A stretch of 29,826 bases of DNA from a virus. Under the pieces are notes generated by a model. That model had not been told where the DNA came from. It searched no databases and saw only the letters and a program-made list of their open reading frames with translations. The translations under genes were made by a program, and so were the position numbers. Location of the stretch: the IMG/VR virus record IMGVR_UViG_3300047462_000736, positions 1 through 29,826 of that record; one strand, given 5' to 3'. Shown piece by piece: positions 1,743 through 12,751 of this stretch. Within the stretch, counting starts at the first letter, position 1; every line of letters begins with the position of its first letter.

Positions 1743-2801
1743 ATGCGAATGCAGGAAATCAAATCCCTAACCGCAATGCGCGGAATATTCGCGCTGTGGG
1801 TTTTGGGGTATCATCTTCGCTCGTTGCACCCCGTTCCAATGCCGGACCCTTTCGGAATCCTGCTGCGCGGTTATCTGGGCGTCGATTTCTTTTTCCTTCT
1901 GAGCGGTTTTGTGCTGGCTGGCGCATATGGCGGTCGCGACTATAACCTGCGGAATGTTTGTCGCTTTGCGGTAATGCGGGTTGGACGAATGTATCCGCTT
2001 CATCTGGCGGTGATCATTGTCTGCCTGATCGCGGCGTGGCTATTAGGCAATCCGCATTCGTGGCGGCGCATCATTGTTGAAGGCTCGCTTGTGCAGAATT
2101 GGCCCGGTGTTACGGTGCCATTGCGATCGATCAACGGCCCCTCGTGGACGATCAGCGTCGAATTGCTAGCCAACTTGCTTCTTGCCGCCGCCGGTTGGTT
2201 TCCGTTGCGGGTGAATAGGTTTTTTGCGGTCGTGATTGGTCTTGTCGCATATGGTTCGATTATGGCTATCGCGGTTCAACACGATGGAGTTTTGGACCTT
2301 TCGATGGCGAATTCGGCCACGCCATTTTATCGGTGTTTCTCGGAGTTCGTCATCGGCGTTTTGTTGTTTCGGTGGCGAAACACCGGTAGTTACCTATCTG
2401 GAACGGCACTTTCGATTCTGAGCGCCATTACAATCGGCGCAATAATTTCAAATATTAGCGACAGAATTGTTGTGTCATTGCTCGCGATTTTAATTTTGGG
2501 TATAGCAGCCAATAATGGAAATCTATTGCGATTTCTTGAGTCCCGGCCGATATACTTTTTGGGAAAGATTTCGTTTTCGGTCTATCTGGTGCATCTGCCA
2601 GTTTTGTACGCCGTCAGCTTTCTGGTCATGCGCACCTCTTTGAGTGTTACACCGGTCTTGGTTCTTTATGTTGTCGGCACCGTACTGATCACGATCGGCG
2701 TTTCGAGTTTGACGTATAAGTATATCGAAGAGTGGGGACGGATAACTTCGAAGCGTTGGGCGGCGAGTATAGGAAAGTCGCGATCATCGGTCGTGGTCTA
2801 A
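1743..2801 (+). CDS. Membrane acyltransferase 3 family protein (OafA/YrhL-like)
   Basis: This is a 352-residue polytopic membrane protein of the acyltransferase-3 family, which moves acyl (usually acetyl) groups onto extracytoplasmic sugars such as O-antigen, capsule or peptidoglycan. Visible hallmarks are the N-terminal R13-x10-H24 pair in MRGIFALWVLGYH, the GVDFFFLLSGF segment near residue 50, the R..R.GRMYPLHL motif near 80-90, and NGPSWTISVELLANLL near 130. About ten hydrophobic helices follow, ending in a short basic tail. There is no fused C-terminal SGNH domain, but the next gene encodes a separate SGNH esterase. GC is lower than in the flanking terminase and portal genes, suggesting recent transfer. 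Phage-borne members of this family are known for serotype conversion, and that role here is inferred. The ATG at 1749 is an alternative start. Confidence 0.9.
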   Translation: MRMQEIKSLTAMRGIFALWVLGYHLRSLHPVPMPDPFGILLRGYLGVDFFFLLSGFVLAGAYGGRDYNLRNVCRFAVMRVGRMYPLHLAVIIVCLIAAWLLGNPHSWRRIIVEGSLVQNWPGVTVPLRSINGPSWTISVELLANLLLAAAGWFPLRVNRFFAVVIGLVAYGSIMAIAVQHDGVLDLSMANSATPFYRCFSEFVIGVLLFRWRNTGSYLSGTALSILSAITIGAIISNISDRIVVSLLAILILGIAANNGNLLRFLESRPIYFLGKISFSVYLVHLPVLYAVSFLVMRTSLSVTPVLVLYVVGTVLITIGVSSLTYKYIEEWGRITSKRWAASIGKSRSSVVV

Positions 2802-8697: not shown

Positions 8698-9522
8698 ATG
8701 AAATTCTACGCCAAAATTACCAAGATCGACGAGGCCGAGCAGATGGTGTTCGGCTATGCCTCGACCGAGGCGCTCGACAGCCAGGGCGAGATCGTCAAGC
8801 GCGAGGCGCTCGAGGCCGCGCTGCCCGAATATATGCGCTTCGGCAATATCCGCGAGATGCATCAGCCTTCGGCGGTCGGCGTCGCGACCGAGGCCGGGCT
8901 GGACGAGACGGGACTGCATCTGGCCGCCAAGATCGTCGATCCCACCGCCTGGGAAAAGGTGGTGCAGGGCGTCTATAAAGGCTTCTCGATCGGCGGCCGC
9001 GTGGTGTCGCGCGACCATGTCCAAAAACACGTCATCACCGGCGTCAAACTCTCCGAAATCAGCCTCGTCGATCGCCCCGCCAATCCCGAGGCGGTGTTCA
9101 CCATGTATAAGGCCGACGACATGGATGGTCTCCGTAAAGCGGGCGCGCGCAACTCCGCCGCCGATCTGCGGATGATCCAAGACATCCACGACCAGGCGGT
9201 CGCGCTGGGCGCAACCTGCGACGGCTGCGCCCCCGATGATGATGATGATGACGACGATAACGATACCGGCGCCGGCGGCGACGCGATGACCGACAAGATC
9301 GCCGGCCTCATCGCCGAACGCGACGCCCTTCGCAAAGCCCTATCCCGCATGCCCGCCGACCGCCGCGCCGCGCTGCGCGCCATCCCCATCGAAAAATCCA
9401 CCGACCGCCTCGGCGGCCTCCACCCCGGCGAAGAAATCTCCCGCGACCCGGTCGAACTCGCCAAACGCGCCCTGCGCCGCCCGATGACCCTGGCGCAGAT
9501 CGAGAAGGTGGCGAATGGGTAG
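8698..9522 (+). CDS. Prohead serine protease, XkdF / HK97-type
   Basis: This protease matures the capsid by trimming scaffold or capsid N-termini inside the prohead. Of 274 residues, the first ~145 carry the herpes/HK97-like protease fold. H55 lies in the EMHQPS motif, S97 in the YKGFSIGG motif, and acidic residues (E120, D125) lie in LSEISLVDRPANPEA. Residues after about 180 begin with an eight-Asp run and continue as a charged helical tail (ERDALRKALSRM, then VELAKRALRRPMTLAQIEKV). No separate scaffold gene is visible, so the tail may act as scaffold. A CGGAGA ribosome site precedes the ATG. The gene lies directly after repeat copy 1. Confidence 0.9.
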   Translation: MKFYAKITKIDEAEQMVFGYASTEALDSQGEIVKREALEAALPEYMRFGNIREMHQPSAVGVATEAGLDETGLHLAAKIVDPTAWEKVVQGVYKGFSIGGRVVSRDHVQKHVITGVKLSEISLVDRPANPEAVFTMYKADDMDGLRKAGARNSAADLRMIQDIHDQAVALGATCDGCAPDDDDDDDDNDTGAGGDAMTDKIAGLIAERDALRKALSRMPADRRAALRAIPIEKSTDRLGGLHPGEEISRDPVELAKRALRRPMTLAQIEKVANG

Positions 9523-9698: not shown

Positions 9699-9989
9699 AT
9701 GACGATTTTTGCAGTGCTCTTACCAGCGGACACCCCGAAAATTGCCGAGCAGATTCAGACCGCATTTCCTAACGACCATTATATGGTCAGCGGAACTCAG
9801 TGGCTGGTTTCAAGTTCGCTGACCGCCGTAGAGTTAAGTGCGAAATTGGGAGTTTATGATCCCAAAAACCCAGGTCTGCCGACTCTTGGGAATGCAATTA
9901 TTTTCGCGACGTCATCATATTTTGGACGCGCTCCGCAAACAGTATGGGATTGGCTAAAGGTAAAATTAGAAAGTCGTGCGGTTGGCTAA
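9699..9989 (+). CDS. Conserved hypothetical small protein
   Basis: This 96-residue protein begins TIFAVLLP, continues with a central TQWLVSSSLTAVELSAKLG, and ends with the motif YFGRAPQTVWDWLKVKLE. The layout is compact alpha/beta with no signal peptide or membrane helix. GC is clearly lower than in the protease and capsid genes around it, and it lies 176 bases after the protease, so it is probably a moron-type insertion. The next gene starts inside its last codons, so the two are likely co-expressed. I cannot name a function. Confidence 0.7.
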   Translation: MTIFAVLLPADTPKIAEQIQTAFPNDHYMVSGTQWLVSSSLTAVELSAKLGVYDPKNPGLPTLGNAIIFATSSYFGRAPQTVWDWLKVKLESRAVG

Positions 9990-10344
9990 CCAGAACCCTC
10001 CATCAGTAGCTGCCGGGCCGCCAACCGAAGTAGCGAGCGTCCCGCCGCCGCAAGATTTATATCCTACTTCCGATATACGCTTCGTCTTGGTTGAGATCGG
10101 CAAGCTAAATACGAAGATCGATCATCTCATATCGGTTCAGGAGAAGTTCGGAAGCAAACTCGATACTGCCGTCCTCACCATCGACAGGGTGAAAACCGGT
10201 AGTATTGTGGCCGGTGTAATTTTATCAGCCGTAATTGCTCTTTTTTGGTGGGCTATTGGAGATAGAATTGAGAACGCCGCTCGTAAGGTTCTAACCGATC
10301 CGGCATTTGAAAGTTCGTCTCACAAGGCTCCTGGGGTAAAATAA
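9976..10344 (+). CDS. Hypothetical single-pass membrane protein with coiled coil
   Basis: A GTG start at 9976 gives 122 residues and a 14-base overlap with the previous gene. The N-terminal ~35 residues are Pro/Ala-rich. Residues ~35-70 can form an amphipathic helix or coiled coil (VLVEIGKLNTKIDHLISVQEKFG). One hydrophobic helix follows at about 76-93 (IVAGVILSAVIALFWWA), then a charged tail. Small proteins of this build occur next to lysis or accessory genes in many phages, but no lysis partner is adjacent here. It ends one base before a strong hairpin. GC is low compared with its neighbours. Confidence 0.6.
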   Translation: MRLANQNPPSVAAGPPTEVASVPPPQDLYPTSDIRFVLVEIGKLNTKIDHLISVQEKFGSKLDTAVLTIDRVKTGSIVAGVILSAVIALFWWAIGDRIENAARKVLTDPAFESSSHKAPGVK

Positions 10345-10369
10345 GCACGCTTAATTTCGTTAAGCGTGC
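10345..10369. terminator. Hairpin terminator between convergent genes
   Basis: There is a perfect 10-bp stem, GCACGCTTAA (10345-10354) and TTAAGCGTGC (10360-10369), with a 5-base loop. Read on the minus strand it is followed by TTATTTTA, giving a U-rich tail. It therefore best serves as terminator of the minus-strand ferritin-like gene, and may also slow plus-strand transcription. Confidence 0.75.
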
Positions 10370-10371
10370 GT

Positions 10372-11076
10372 CTAACCCGCCACCATCCCCGCCACCGTCG
10401 TCACCGCATTATCGATGCTCAACGGCAAGGTCGCCACGCTGCCGGCGAAGGCCGATAGCAGCTTTCGGTACAGCCGCTGCTCGATCGCGCAGAGTTCCCG
10501 AACGCGGGCATGATCGAGCTCGGAAAGTCCGTGCAGCCGCTCCGCCATATTGGTCAGATGTCCGCGTTCCTCGGCCAATAGGCTTTTCAGCGACACGGTG
10601 TGACCGGCGCTTTCCAGCGCCGCCTGGTATAGGCGATAGCCCCACACTGCTCGGAACTCGACGATCATAGACATGGTGAGGTACACCGCGCGCGGATGGG
10701 CGTCGGCATCGAACACGCGCGCGATTTCGGCTTCCAGCCGGTGGAAGTATCGGCGCGCCGACGACGCGGCGACCATGTCGTCGTGCTCGTAATCCATCGT
10801 GCGGCCGGCCTCGCGGTCGGCGTGGCGCTTGAAGAAGAAGGCGTGGCGGGTTTCGTCGGCCAGATGTTTCAGGGTCGGCTGGTCGATGGTCTTGCCGCGC
10901 TGGGTCGCCATGATCTTATGGCTGCCCAGATGTTCCAGCATCGACAGCGTATTCAGAAACCGCGCATGCAGCGCCTTCTCCCCGATGAACCGCGCCATGA
11001 CCGCCGATGTCTCGACCGCCATCGCCGCGTTGTTCATCTCGAATTCGGAAACCAGTAATCCGGTGTCGATCGGCAT
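10372..11076 (-). CDS. Ferritin-like diiron-type four-helix protein
   Basis: The protein has 234 residues, is almost wholly helical, and carries the ligand pattern of ferritin-like diiron proteins. E48 lies on helix 1 (TLSMLEHLGSHK), E75-x-x-H78 on helix 2 (LADETRHAFF), E140 on helix 3 (MIVEFRAVWGYR), and E170-x-x-H173 on helix 4 (LLAEERGHL). This arrangement binds two metal ions in oxygen-handling or iron-storage proteins, but the substrate cannot be told. It is the only minus-strand gene in the head module. It sits between the protease and capsid genes, has a hairpin terminator at its 3' end, and has a perfect inverted repeat 32 bases before its start. GC is like the core genes, so it may come from a host-like chromosome. 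It is not a known virion component. Confidence 0.8.
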   Translation of the reverse strand: MPIDTGLLVSEFEMNNAAMAVETSAVMARFIGEKALHARFLNTLSMLEHLGSHKIMATQRGKTIDQPTLKHLADETRHAFFFKRHADREAGRTMDYEHDDMVAASSARRYFHRLEAEIARVFDADAHPRAVYLTMSMIVEFRAVWGYRLYQAALESAGHTVSLKSLLAEERGHLTNMAERLHGLSELDHARVRELCAIEQRLYRKLLSAFAGSVATLPLSIDNAVTTVAGMVAG

Positions 11077-11108
11077 CGCTAACAGTCCAATTCTCTCTAA
11101 ATTATTCC

Positions 11109-11188
11109 GTCATCCCGTCGAAAGACGGGATCCATCTCTCGGCCGCCGAGACCCTGGAAACATGGATCCCGTCTTTCGACGGGATGAC
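11109..11188. repeat. Perfect 27-bp inverted repeat, copy 2 of the dispersed element
   Basis: Left arm 11109-11135 and right arm 11162-11188 are exact reverse complements. Each contains CCCGTC-GAAA-GACGGG (or its complement), so each arm can also fold alone. The 26-base centre holds a smaller CTCGG/CCGAG palindrome. It is the same family as 8592-8673. The position just upstream of the minus-strand gene and 130 bases before the capsid gene could affect both transcripts. Confidence 0.9.
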
Positions 11189-11320
11189 AAGCCAAGAATA
11201 GACGCAATCAACCCATTCCGGCCAGTGAAGCCCGCCGACCGGAAATTTGCAACTCGCCCTTGGGCAAGGTGGTGGGAACGCCGCGACGGCGTCCCGTCCC
11301 GATGATGGAGCCTCTCAACG

Positions 11321-12751
11321 ATGAATGGAAATGTAACCGCCGATACCTTGGCGCAGGTCAAGGATGCCTTGTCTCACGCCACCCCCGAAGTGCTGTCCAA
11401 GGCAATCACCACCTCGACCGGTCTGGTCGCCTATGACCTGCAGCCTTCGGCCAAGAACCTCTACCCCGCCGCCACGCCCATCCGCAACGTGCTCCCGCGC
11501 GTCGGCGGCGGCACCGGCACGGCCACCAACTGGCGGCAGGTCAACGCCATCATCGGCTCCGGCTGGGATGCGATGGGCTGGGTGCCGGAAGGCCAGCGCT
11601 CCGGCAGGATGAGCTACAACACCTCGACCCGCTCAGCCTCCTTCGCCACGATCGGCGAGGAGGATTCGGTGACCTTCGAGGCGGTCTCCGCCGCCCAGGG
11701 CTTTGAGGATATCCAGGCCACCGCCACCATGCGGCTGCTGCAGAAGATGATGCTGAAGGAAGAAAACGCCTTCCTCGGCGGCAACGGCTCGCTTCAGCTC
11801 GGCACGCCGGCCACGCCTTCGCTCTCGGCCAGCGGCACCGGCGCGACTTTGCCGGCCGCGACCTATTCGGTGATCGTCGTGGCGCTGACCTATGAAGGTT
11901 ATCGTAATTCCAGCCTCACCGGCGGGGTAGCTCCCTCGGCCAATGCGACTCAAGCGGTGACCCTCGGCCAGACCTTGTTCGCTTCCGTCACGGCCGCGGT
12001 CGGCGCGGTCGGCTATGCCTGGTATGTCGGTATCGCGGGCGCGGAAAAGCTGCAGGCGATCACCACGATCAACAGCGTCGCCTTCTCCGCGCCGCTCGCC
12101 ACCGGCAGCCAGGCCGCGACCGCGATCACCGCCGACAACTCAGCCAATCCGGGTCTGGCCTATGACGGTCTGCTGACGGCGGCGCTCAAGGCCGGGTCCG
12201 GCGCTTATGTGAACTATCTCGCCACCGGCACCGCCGGAACCGGCACGCCGCTGACCGCGTCGGGCCGCGGTTCGGTCAACGAGATCGACCTGATGCTGCA
12301 GAAGATGTGGGATCAGTACGAGGTCAGCCCGACCGTCCTCTACGTCAACAGCCAGGAACAGCGCTCGATCACCAACAAGGTGCTCTCCAGCGCCTCCGGT
12401 CCGCTGCTGCGCTACACCAGCGACGGCCAGGATCCTTTCGCCATTATCGCGAACGGCGTCGTCGAGTATTACTACAACCCCTTCGCGCTCGACGGCGGCT
12501 ACAAGATCCCGGTCAAGATCCACCCCTTCGTGCCGCCGGGCACCATCGTCGGCTGGTCGGAGAACCTGCCGGCGCAGTACCAGTCCAGCAATGTCCCGAA
12601 CGTCGCCGAGGTCAAAACCCGCCGCGACTATTACCGGATGGATTGGCCGCTGAAGACTCGCGCCTACGAATTCGGCGTCTATGCCGAGGAAGTCCTGGCG
12701 ATCTACGCGCCGTTCGCGATGGGCGTTATCGCCAATATCGCCAACGGCTGA
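11321..12751 (+). CDS. Major capsid protein, HK97 fold with Ig/FN3-like insertion
   Basis: This 476-residue capsid protein is preceded by GGAG 12 bases before the ATG. The N-terminal part (TPEVLSKAITTSTGLVAYDLQ, then LYPAATPIRNVLPRVGG, then TNWRQVNAI) and the C-terminal part (NGVVEYYYNPFAL, HPFVPPGTIVGWSENLP, VAEVKTRRDYYRMDWP) match SU10-like HK97-fold capsid proteins. Residues ~165-275 form a beta-rich module (LPAATYSVIVVALTYEGYRNSSL, then a Ser/Ala/Thr-rich part) that looks like an Ig/FN3-type surface domain inserted into the shell protein. This is one of the highest-expression genes of such phages, and a hairpin follows it. Confidence 0.92.
   Translation: MNGNVTADTLAQVKDALSHATPEVLSKAITTSTGLVAYDLQPSAKNLYPAATPIRNVLPRVGGGTGTATNWRQVNAIIGSGWDAMGWVPEGQRSGRMSYNTSTRSASFATIGEEDSVTFEAVSAAQGFEDIQATATMRLLQKMMLKEENAFLGGNGSLQLGTPATPSLSASGTGATLPAATYSVIVVALTYEGYRNSSLTGGVAPSANATQAVTLGQTLFASVTAAVGAVGYAWYVGIAGAEKLQAITTINSVAFSAPLATGSQAATAITADNSANPGLAYDGLLTAALKAGSGAYVNYLATGTAGTGTPLTASGRGSVNEIDLMLQKMWDQYEVSPTVLYVNSQEQRSITNKVLSSASGPLLRYTSDGQDPFAIIANGVVEYYYNPFALDGGYKIPVKIHPFVPPGTIVGWSENLPAQYQSSNVPNVAEVKTRRDYYRMDWPLKTRAYEFGVYAEEVLAIYAPFAMGVIANIANG

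What the first reader, a model, noticed from the sequence alone, without database searches (positions are those of the whole stretch)
10345..11188. Minus-strand ferritin-like diiron gene inside the head module
A complete ligand set (E48, E75/H78, E140, E170/H173) marks a diiron four-helix protein lying between the protease and the capsid, in antisense to the late operon. It has its own 3' hairpin and a perfect 27-bp inverted repeat at its 5' side. Ferritin-like proteins are not usual phage head parts. It may be a lysogenic-conversion gene for oxidative stress or iron, or a host gene carried in with the repeat.
Basis: partly seen in the sequence, partly recalled or inferred. Interest (0 to 1): 0.62.

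Follow-up and report, generated by a model that had tools for sequence, protein, structure and literature searches.

The report
Phage-borne BioE-like biotin-precursor oxygenase
A phage carries, tucked backwards into its head-gene block, an iron enzyme whose bacterial cousins sit in the vitamin-B7 (biotin) operon, so the phage probably brings its host a way to make the biotin precursor from fatty acids; the gene is rare and this has not been tested in the laboratory.

Summary
In detail: a 234-aa minus-strand gene (10372-11076) with a complete diiron ligand set lies between head protease and capsid, with its own terminator. It is not a ferritin. Homologues (40-70%) were found in 24 bacterial genomes; in 10 they sit directly behind the biotin genes (bioBFDA-X), where other Alphaproteobacteria keep the pimelate enzyme bioZ. 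Ligand spacing is almost that of BioE, the diiron oxygenase that cuts long-chain acyl-ACP to pimeloyl-ACP, and 7 of 14 other published BioE residues match (0.85 expected). Several carrier genomes have biotin genes but no detectable BioC, BioZ or BioW. Best reading: a BioE-like oxygenase used as an accessory (lysogenic-conversion) gene. In IMG/VR it occurs only in one phage lineage (this contig and 15 others), always in the same antisense slot, under purifying selection, but is absent, shrunken or replaced in related phages, so it is not a virion part. The 27-bp repeat is unrelated: it is missing beside the 98%-identical copy. Caveats: one BioE pocket residue is Gly/Ala in the phages (as in two operon-linked homologues), and no true BioE sequence could be compared, so strict membership stays open.

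The parts
10372..11076 (-). diiron oxygenase gene (BioE-like), 234 aa, ligands E48, E75/H78, E140, E170/H173
10345..10369 (-). intrinsic terminator of the gene (10-bp stem, TTATTTT tail)
   Evidence: kept downstream of the gene in L003 and L004
11083..11211 (.). stretch upstream of the gene that differs from L003/L004; holds the palindromic repeat; the promoter-like motif conserved in 11 other phages is not seen here
11109..11188 (.). dispersed palindromic repeat (27-bp perfect arms), not part of the gene
8698..9522 (+). head maturation protease, left border of the accessory slot
11321..12751 (+). phrog_13692 protein taken as major capsid protein (by position and size), right border of the slot
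9699..10344 (+). two small sense ORFs (96 and 122 aa) that share the slot; among the gene-bearing contigs kept in L003 and L004 only

Best explanation
The gene encodes a BioE-like diiron oxygenase. Inferred action: it binds long-chain acyl-ACP, activates O2 at two iron atoms and oxidatively cuts the acyl chain to leave pimeloyl-ACP, the seven-carbon precursor that the host's BioF, BioA, BioD and BioB turn into biotin. The phage carries it as an accessory gene with its own terminator and probably its own promoter, read against the late operon, so it could be expressed in the lysogen or early in infection and raise or restore host biotin supply (and with it acetyl-CoA carboxylase and fatty-acid synthesis). 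Shown here: ligand set, fold, purifying selection, fixed antisense slot, accessory distribution, biotin-operon linkage of cellular relatives. Inferred: substrate, product, time of expression, benefit.
For: (1) In 10 of 24 chromosomal homologue loci the gene lies directly 3' of bioA (L020, L033, L034, L036-L041) or of bioD (L031); Alphaproteobacteria with BioZ have bioZ in that place (bioBFDAZ, PMC8024396). (2) 23 of 24 carrier genomes have bioB. No BioW in any; exactly one FabH, hence no spare FabH that could be BioZ, in G001, G003, G014 and G017-G024; the best BioC hits in G001, G007, G014, G017, G020, G021 are mutually 42-63% identical proteins of another methyltransferase type, and no genome has a BioC over the curated cut-off. 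G001 carries the copy that falls inside the phage clade. (3) Ligand spacing 27/3/62/30/3 against 27/3/69/30/3 in EmBioE and CpBioE (PMC12915131); of 14 further published substrate/ACP positions 7 are identical (L44, L47, K54, I55, Y132, Y147, Y150), shuffled mean 0.85, P 5e-6. (4) Fold and profile point to diiron oxygenases of the ADO type (Z 17.0 and 16.6; 8 of 10 weak PDB profile hits are ADOs). (5) dN/dS 0.10-0.26 in phages; conserved TTG..TAC promoter-like motif upstream in 11 phages and in L018. (6) A prophage with the same head module in Nitrospirillum iridis shows that relatives are temperate phages of Alphaproteobacteria.
Against: No BioE sequence was available for a direct comparison. 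Position 146 (Leu in both BioEs; L131A kills EmBioE) is Gly or Ala in phages and L018, though also in two operon-linked homologues (Gly in L031, Ala in L033). Phage genes are not next to bio genes and fall in a clade of orphan homologues; the gammaproteobacterial orphans coexist with a BioC-like gene beside bioB, and G022-G024 also have a BioC-like gene, so the enzyme is not always the only candidate. The fold fits MiaE as well as ADO. Host and expression unknown.
Confidence: 0.6

Rival explanations
1. Same fold and ancestry, changed chemistry: in the orphan/phage clade the enzyme acts on another acyl-ACP, acyl-CoA or aldehyde substrate and no longer serves biotin.
For: Orphan position in phages, Nitrospirillum and Gammaproteobacteria; coexistence with BioC-like genes in the latter; pocket residue 146 is G/A in phages.
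Against: Other BioE pocket and carrier residues kept, including K54, Y132, Y147; G/A at 146 also occurs in operon-linked L031 and L033; in G001, which has the phage-clade copy, no other pimelate enzyme was found.
Confidence: 0.2
2. Host-takeover role: the enzyme drains long-chain acyl-ACP and so slows host lipid synthesis during infection; biotin is a by-product.
For: EmBioE overexpression arrests E. coli growth, rescued by long-chain fatty acids (PMC12915131).
Against: CpBioE is not toxic (same paper); promoter-like motif and terminator of its own and accessory distribution fit a lysogenic-conversion gene better; no expression data.
Confidence: 0.08
3. Ferritin or Dps-like iron storage, or an oxidative-stress gene.
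For: Ferritin-like helical diiron arrangement.
Against: No match to any Pfam, NCBIfam or PHROGs family; structural matches are ADO/MiaE oxygenases; relatives in biotin operons.
Confidence: 0.04
4. tRNA hydroxylase like MiaE.
For: Best structural Z 17.2 to Pseudomonas putida MiaE, tied with ADO at 17.0.
Against: No sequence-family hit; biotin-operon linkage.
Confidence: 0.05

Closest known systems
BioE (Elizabethkingia meningoseptica, Chlamydia psittaci), diiron acyl-ACP oxygenase of biotin synthesis (PMC12915131)
   Same: Six ligands with nearly the same spacing; 7 of 14 other functional positions identical; biotin-operon linkage of the cellular relatives
   Different: Published BioE distribution names no Alphaproteobacteria and no phages; residue 146 differs; carried by a phage in an antisense head-module slot
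BioZ (bioBFDAZ operon of Alphaproteobacteria; PMC8024396)
   Same: Same place in the operon and probably the same product (pimeloyl-ACP)
   Different: Unrelated protein: BioZ is a FabH-type synthase, this is a diiron oxygenase
BioI (P450, Bacillus subtilis)
   Same: Would do the same job, oxidative cutting of long-chain acyl-ACP
   Different: Heme P450, unrelated
Cyanobacterial aldehyde-deformylating oxygenase and MiaE
   Same: Same fold and ligand type (Z about 17)
   Different: Sequence only marginally alike (profile E 0.06 or worse to ADOs); different genetic setting
Biotin synthesis genes in magroviruses (PMC10160649)
   Same: Virus carrying biotin synthesis genes
   Different: Archaeal viruses; in the passage read no diiron pimelate enzyme is named

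Membership tests
BioE | Diiron ligands E..ExxH..E..ExxH with helix spacing 27 and 30 | tested here: met
   E48, E75, H78, E140, E170, H173 invariant in 27 sequences
BioE | Published substrate and ACP/CoA-contact residues | tested here: inconclusive
   7 of 14 identical, P 5e-6 against shuffles; but L146 (Em L131), one of four residues stated to be conserved across BioE homologues, is G/A in phages and in operon-linked L031 and L033
BioE | Linked to biotin genes | tested here: met
   10 of 24 chromosomal homologues; not in the phages themselves
BioE | More than 40% identity to EmBioE over 85% (published search threshold) | not testable with these tools
   No BioE sequence was reachable
BioE | Makes pimeloyl-ACP, complements E. 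coli delta-bioH | not testable with these tools
   Needs the bench
Phage accessory gene (moron / auxiliary metabolic gene) | Present in some and absent in other close relatives at one locus | tested here: met
   10 intact, 6 core-deleted, 12 absent among 28 contigs with capsid 80% or more and both borders visible
Phage accessory gene (moron / auxiliary metabolic gene) | Own promoter and terminator, separate from the late operon | tested here: inconclusive
   Terminator found; conserved TTG..TAC promoter-like motif in 11 other phages and L018, but the window has a different upstream stretch
Ferritin / Dps / rubrerythrin | Match to a ferritin-like family profile | tested here: not met
   No Pfam or NCBIfam hit
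MiaE | Match to the MiaE sequence family | tested here: not met
   No Pfam or NCBIfam hit; the fold alone matches

The most novel reading that the evidence does not exclude
The family is the missing pimelate-forming enzyme of a set of Alphaproteobacteria without BioC or BioZ, and one phage lineage has captured it, retuned its acyl pocket (residue 146 to Gly/Ala) and in some members cut it down to a selected mini-protein without the iron site, so that the same locus now yields either an enzyme or a core-less derivative with another role.
Probability: 0.2. Interest if true: 0.8.

Novelty: new variant of a known kind. Interest (0 to 1): 0.64.

Why it matters
How many Alphaproteobacteria make the pimelate half of biotin is not settled; this family gives a concrete candidate (bioBFDA-X) that one complementation assay can test. 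It would extend BioE-type chemistry, described in 2025, to Alphaproteobacteria and to phages, and would be a phage accessory gene at the first committed step of a vitamin pathway, drawing directly on the host's acyl-ACP pool. The slot between protease and capsid is also shown to be an exchange site with varied cargo.

Tried and rejected
Pfam, NCBIfam, PHROGs and PDB sequence searches with the protein: no usable hit. INPHARED phages and PLSDB plasmids: no homologue; weak plasmid hits with operon homologues (a Caballeronia one among them) look like chance by size and context. A profile scan of 398 Pseudomonadota genomes found only the centre genome, so I could not reach true BioE sequences of Burkholderiaceae or Bacteroidota. 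Search for the host: no capsid match in the order of MAG RYN_452; distant prophages of the family in 4 of 385 alphaproteobacterial genomes, a fifth genome with a weak partial match. The 27-bp repeat as a host tag: only 1-mismatch copies in one of 385 genomes, so no host is named. Iron storage, MiaE-type tRNA hydroxylase and virion part were considered and rejected (see rivals). The viral structure library gave no close match. A promoter scan found nothing on the minus strand in the window. No Rfam families or tRNAs in the window.

Full report
OBSERVATION. The window is a 29,826-base IMG/VR virus record with terminase, portal, head maturation protease, a phrog_13692 protein taken as major capsid protein, adaptor and tail genes, all on the plus strand. 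Between protease (ends 9522) and capsid (starts 11321) lies a minus-strand gene, 10372-11076, 234 aa. A minus-strand intrinsic terminator follows at 10345-10369. The palindromic repeat 11109-11188 is as described.

FOLD. With 15 phage sequences AlphaFold2 reached pLDDT 81; with 27 sequences pLDDT 92.5 and pTM 0.87, all helical. VIA-align gives MiaE 2itb Z 17.2 (rmsd 2.6, 185 aligned) and proteins with aldehyde-deformylating activity, 8fhc Z 17.0 and 5ux1 Z 16.6. Foldseek E-values are weak, and Z up to about 13-14 is common for helical bundles, so the fold alone says only 'diiron oxygenase-type bundle'. A profile search of PDB sequences gave ten weak hits, eight of them aldehyde-deformylating oxygenases (best E 0.06).

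RELATIVES IN PHAGES. 15 IMG/VR contigs encode relatives at 64-98% identity; wider scans found no others, and INPHARED has none. All 15 carry the gene in antisense immediately upstream of the capsid gene. dN/dS is 0.10-0.26, so the protein is under selection. A capsid-anchored survey of 80 contigs shows that the slot is variable. Among the 28 contigs with capsid identity of 80% or more and both borders visible, 10 have the intact gene, 6 have core-deleted forms and 12 have none. Other cargo in the slot includes antisense PEP-CTERM proteins (L080, L081, L096), a PBECR-type nuclease (L068) and, beside the intact gene, a DUF2335 protein (L078). Contigs with capsid of 66-70% never have it. This is the behaviour of an accessory gene, not of a virion part.

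RELATIVES IN BACTERIA. A genome scan gave 24 chromosomal homologues at 40-70% (a 25th locus, L042, is a short fragment). In ten of them the gene is directly behind the late biotin genes: bioF-bioD-bioA-X or bioB-bioF-bioD-bioA-X in L020, L034 and L036-L041, bioD-bioA-X in the truncated L033, and bioF-bioD-X in L031. BioZ occupies this place in Agrobacterium and relatives (bioBFDAZ, PMC8024396). 23 of 24 carrier genomes have bioB; the remaining one has bioF, bioD and bioA on its truncated contig. BioW is absent in all 24. Nine of the ten operon-type genomes have exactly one FabH (G016 none was found), as do G001 and G018, so there is no spare FabH that could be BioZ. No genome has a BioC over the curated cut-off. 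The best BioC-like hits in G001, G007, G014, G017, G020 and G021 are mutually 42-63% identical; from general knowledge they look like the NDUFAF5-type methyltransferase. Gammaproteobacterial carriers do have a BioC-like gene next to bioB, and G022-G024 have a 127-146-bit BioC-like gene; there the enzyme would be redundant or do something else. These are mostly draft genomes, so absence is tentative.

COMPARISON WITH BioE. BioE is a diiron ferritin-like oxygenase that cuts long-chain acyl-ACP to pimeloyl-ACP (PMC12915131; the first description, PNAS 2025 e2501226122, is not held). Published ligands are E41, E68, H71, E140, E170, H173 (C. psittaci) and E26, E53, H56, E125, E155, H158 (E. meningoseptica). 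Anchoring on the ligands fixes the register in both halves. Of 14 other distinct published functional positions 7 are identical in the window protein: L44, L47, K54, I55, Y132, Y147, Y150; the shuffled mean is 0.85, P 5e-6. Off-register slides give a mean of 1.3 and at most 6 of 21, against 10 of 21 in register. K54 (a carrier-contact lysine), Y132 and Y147 are invariant in the whole family. Four published positions in the K102-D106 / R87-H91 loop and the last helix were left out because the loop length differs and the register is unsure. The exception is position 146: Leu in both BioEs, and Leu in six, Phe in two, Gly in one (L031) and Ala in one (L033) of the operon-linked homologues, but always Gly or Ala in phages and L018. 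Since EmBioE L131A is inactive, the phage pocket must differ in detail. I therefore say 'works like BioE' and leave strict membership open.

ORIGIN. In the tree the phage proteins and L018 (MAG RYN_452, Rhodospirillales) form one fully supported clade with L018 inside it (89/78); eight operon-linked homologues and L035 lie across the midpoint root, and the operon-linked L020 and L031 branch below the orphans. So a biotin-operon origin followed by relocation is likely; rooting is by midpoint and several branches are long. The stretch upstream of the gene shared by eight phages and L018 starts at CTGCGGCA..CTGGCGCGGTTG and not further left, where only the phages agree: the moved unit probably included a promoter. 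The motif TTG-(20)-TA is conserved in all 12 aligned leaders; call it promoter-like, unproven. The window, L003 and L004 have other leaders.

THE REPEAT. Window 11083-11211 (129 bp, repeat included) stands where L003 has 676 and L004 826 other bases. None of the other phages with the gene has it there; similar palindromes occur in L069 and L088; one-mismatch copies occur in one alphaproteobacterial genome. It is a dispersed palindrome, not a vehicle of the gene.

HOST AND LIFESTYLE. Nitrospirillum iridis has a prophage with the same gene order (portal 53%, protease 49%, capsid 42%), so relatives are temperate and infect Alphaproteobacteria. The host of the window is not known.

MECHANISM. Shown: diiron ligand set, confident fold, selection, slot, accessory distribution, operon linkage of relatives. 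Inferred from BioE: O2-dependent cutting of acyl-ACP to pimeloyl-ACP. Inferred: expression from its own promoter in the lysogen, benefit through biotin. Main doubt: the orphan clade may have shifted substrate.

Noticed in passing
L065 2659-3153, L066 1334-1895, L069 2225-2698, L088 5440-6001, L091 4378-6001, L093 1-1003 (minus strand): Core-deleted forms of the gene: open frames of 91-102 aa that keep the first helix and the C-terminal LYEKLLAGFANALATMPSGIET tail but have lost the diiron core; close pairs still show dN/dS 0.16-0.27. Six contigs in IMG/VR. Function unexplained.
   Followed up: partly
L085 5203-6001 (minus strand): A 185-aa open frame of the same family that has lost its iron ligands (E48 to G, E75/H78 deleted, E140 to Q) without a stop codon.
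   Followed up: partly
L080 2668-3567, L081 4860-5717, L096 4088-4873 (minus strand): PEP-CTERM proteins as alternative antisense cargo of the same slot.
   Followed up: no
L068 2165-2569 (minus strand): PBECR2/PBECR3-type nuclease as alternative cargo of the slot.
   Followed up: no
window 1743-2801 (+): O-acetyltransferase (phrog_3333, O-antigen acetylase-like) between terminase and the neck gene; only 30-36% identical in several relatives, possibly a second accessory gene.
   Followed up: no
L169 2022-13000 (Nitrospirillum iridis chromosome): Prophage with the same head-tail gene order; its protease-capsid slot has no oxygenase gene.
   Followed up: partly
L166 5395-6261(-), L167 3704-4426(+): BioC-like methyltransferases (128-146 bits, below cut-off) in genomes that also have the operon-linked oxygenase; identity as BioC unclear.
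   Followed up: no
L018 and L042 (MAG RYN_452): Bacterial copy 70% identical to the phage gene and nested in the phage clade, plus a short 76% fragment on another contig of the same MAG.
   Followed up: partly
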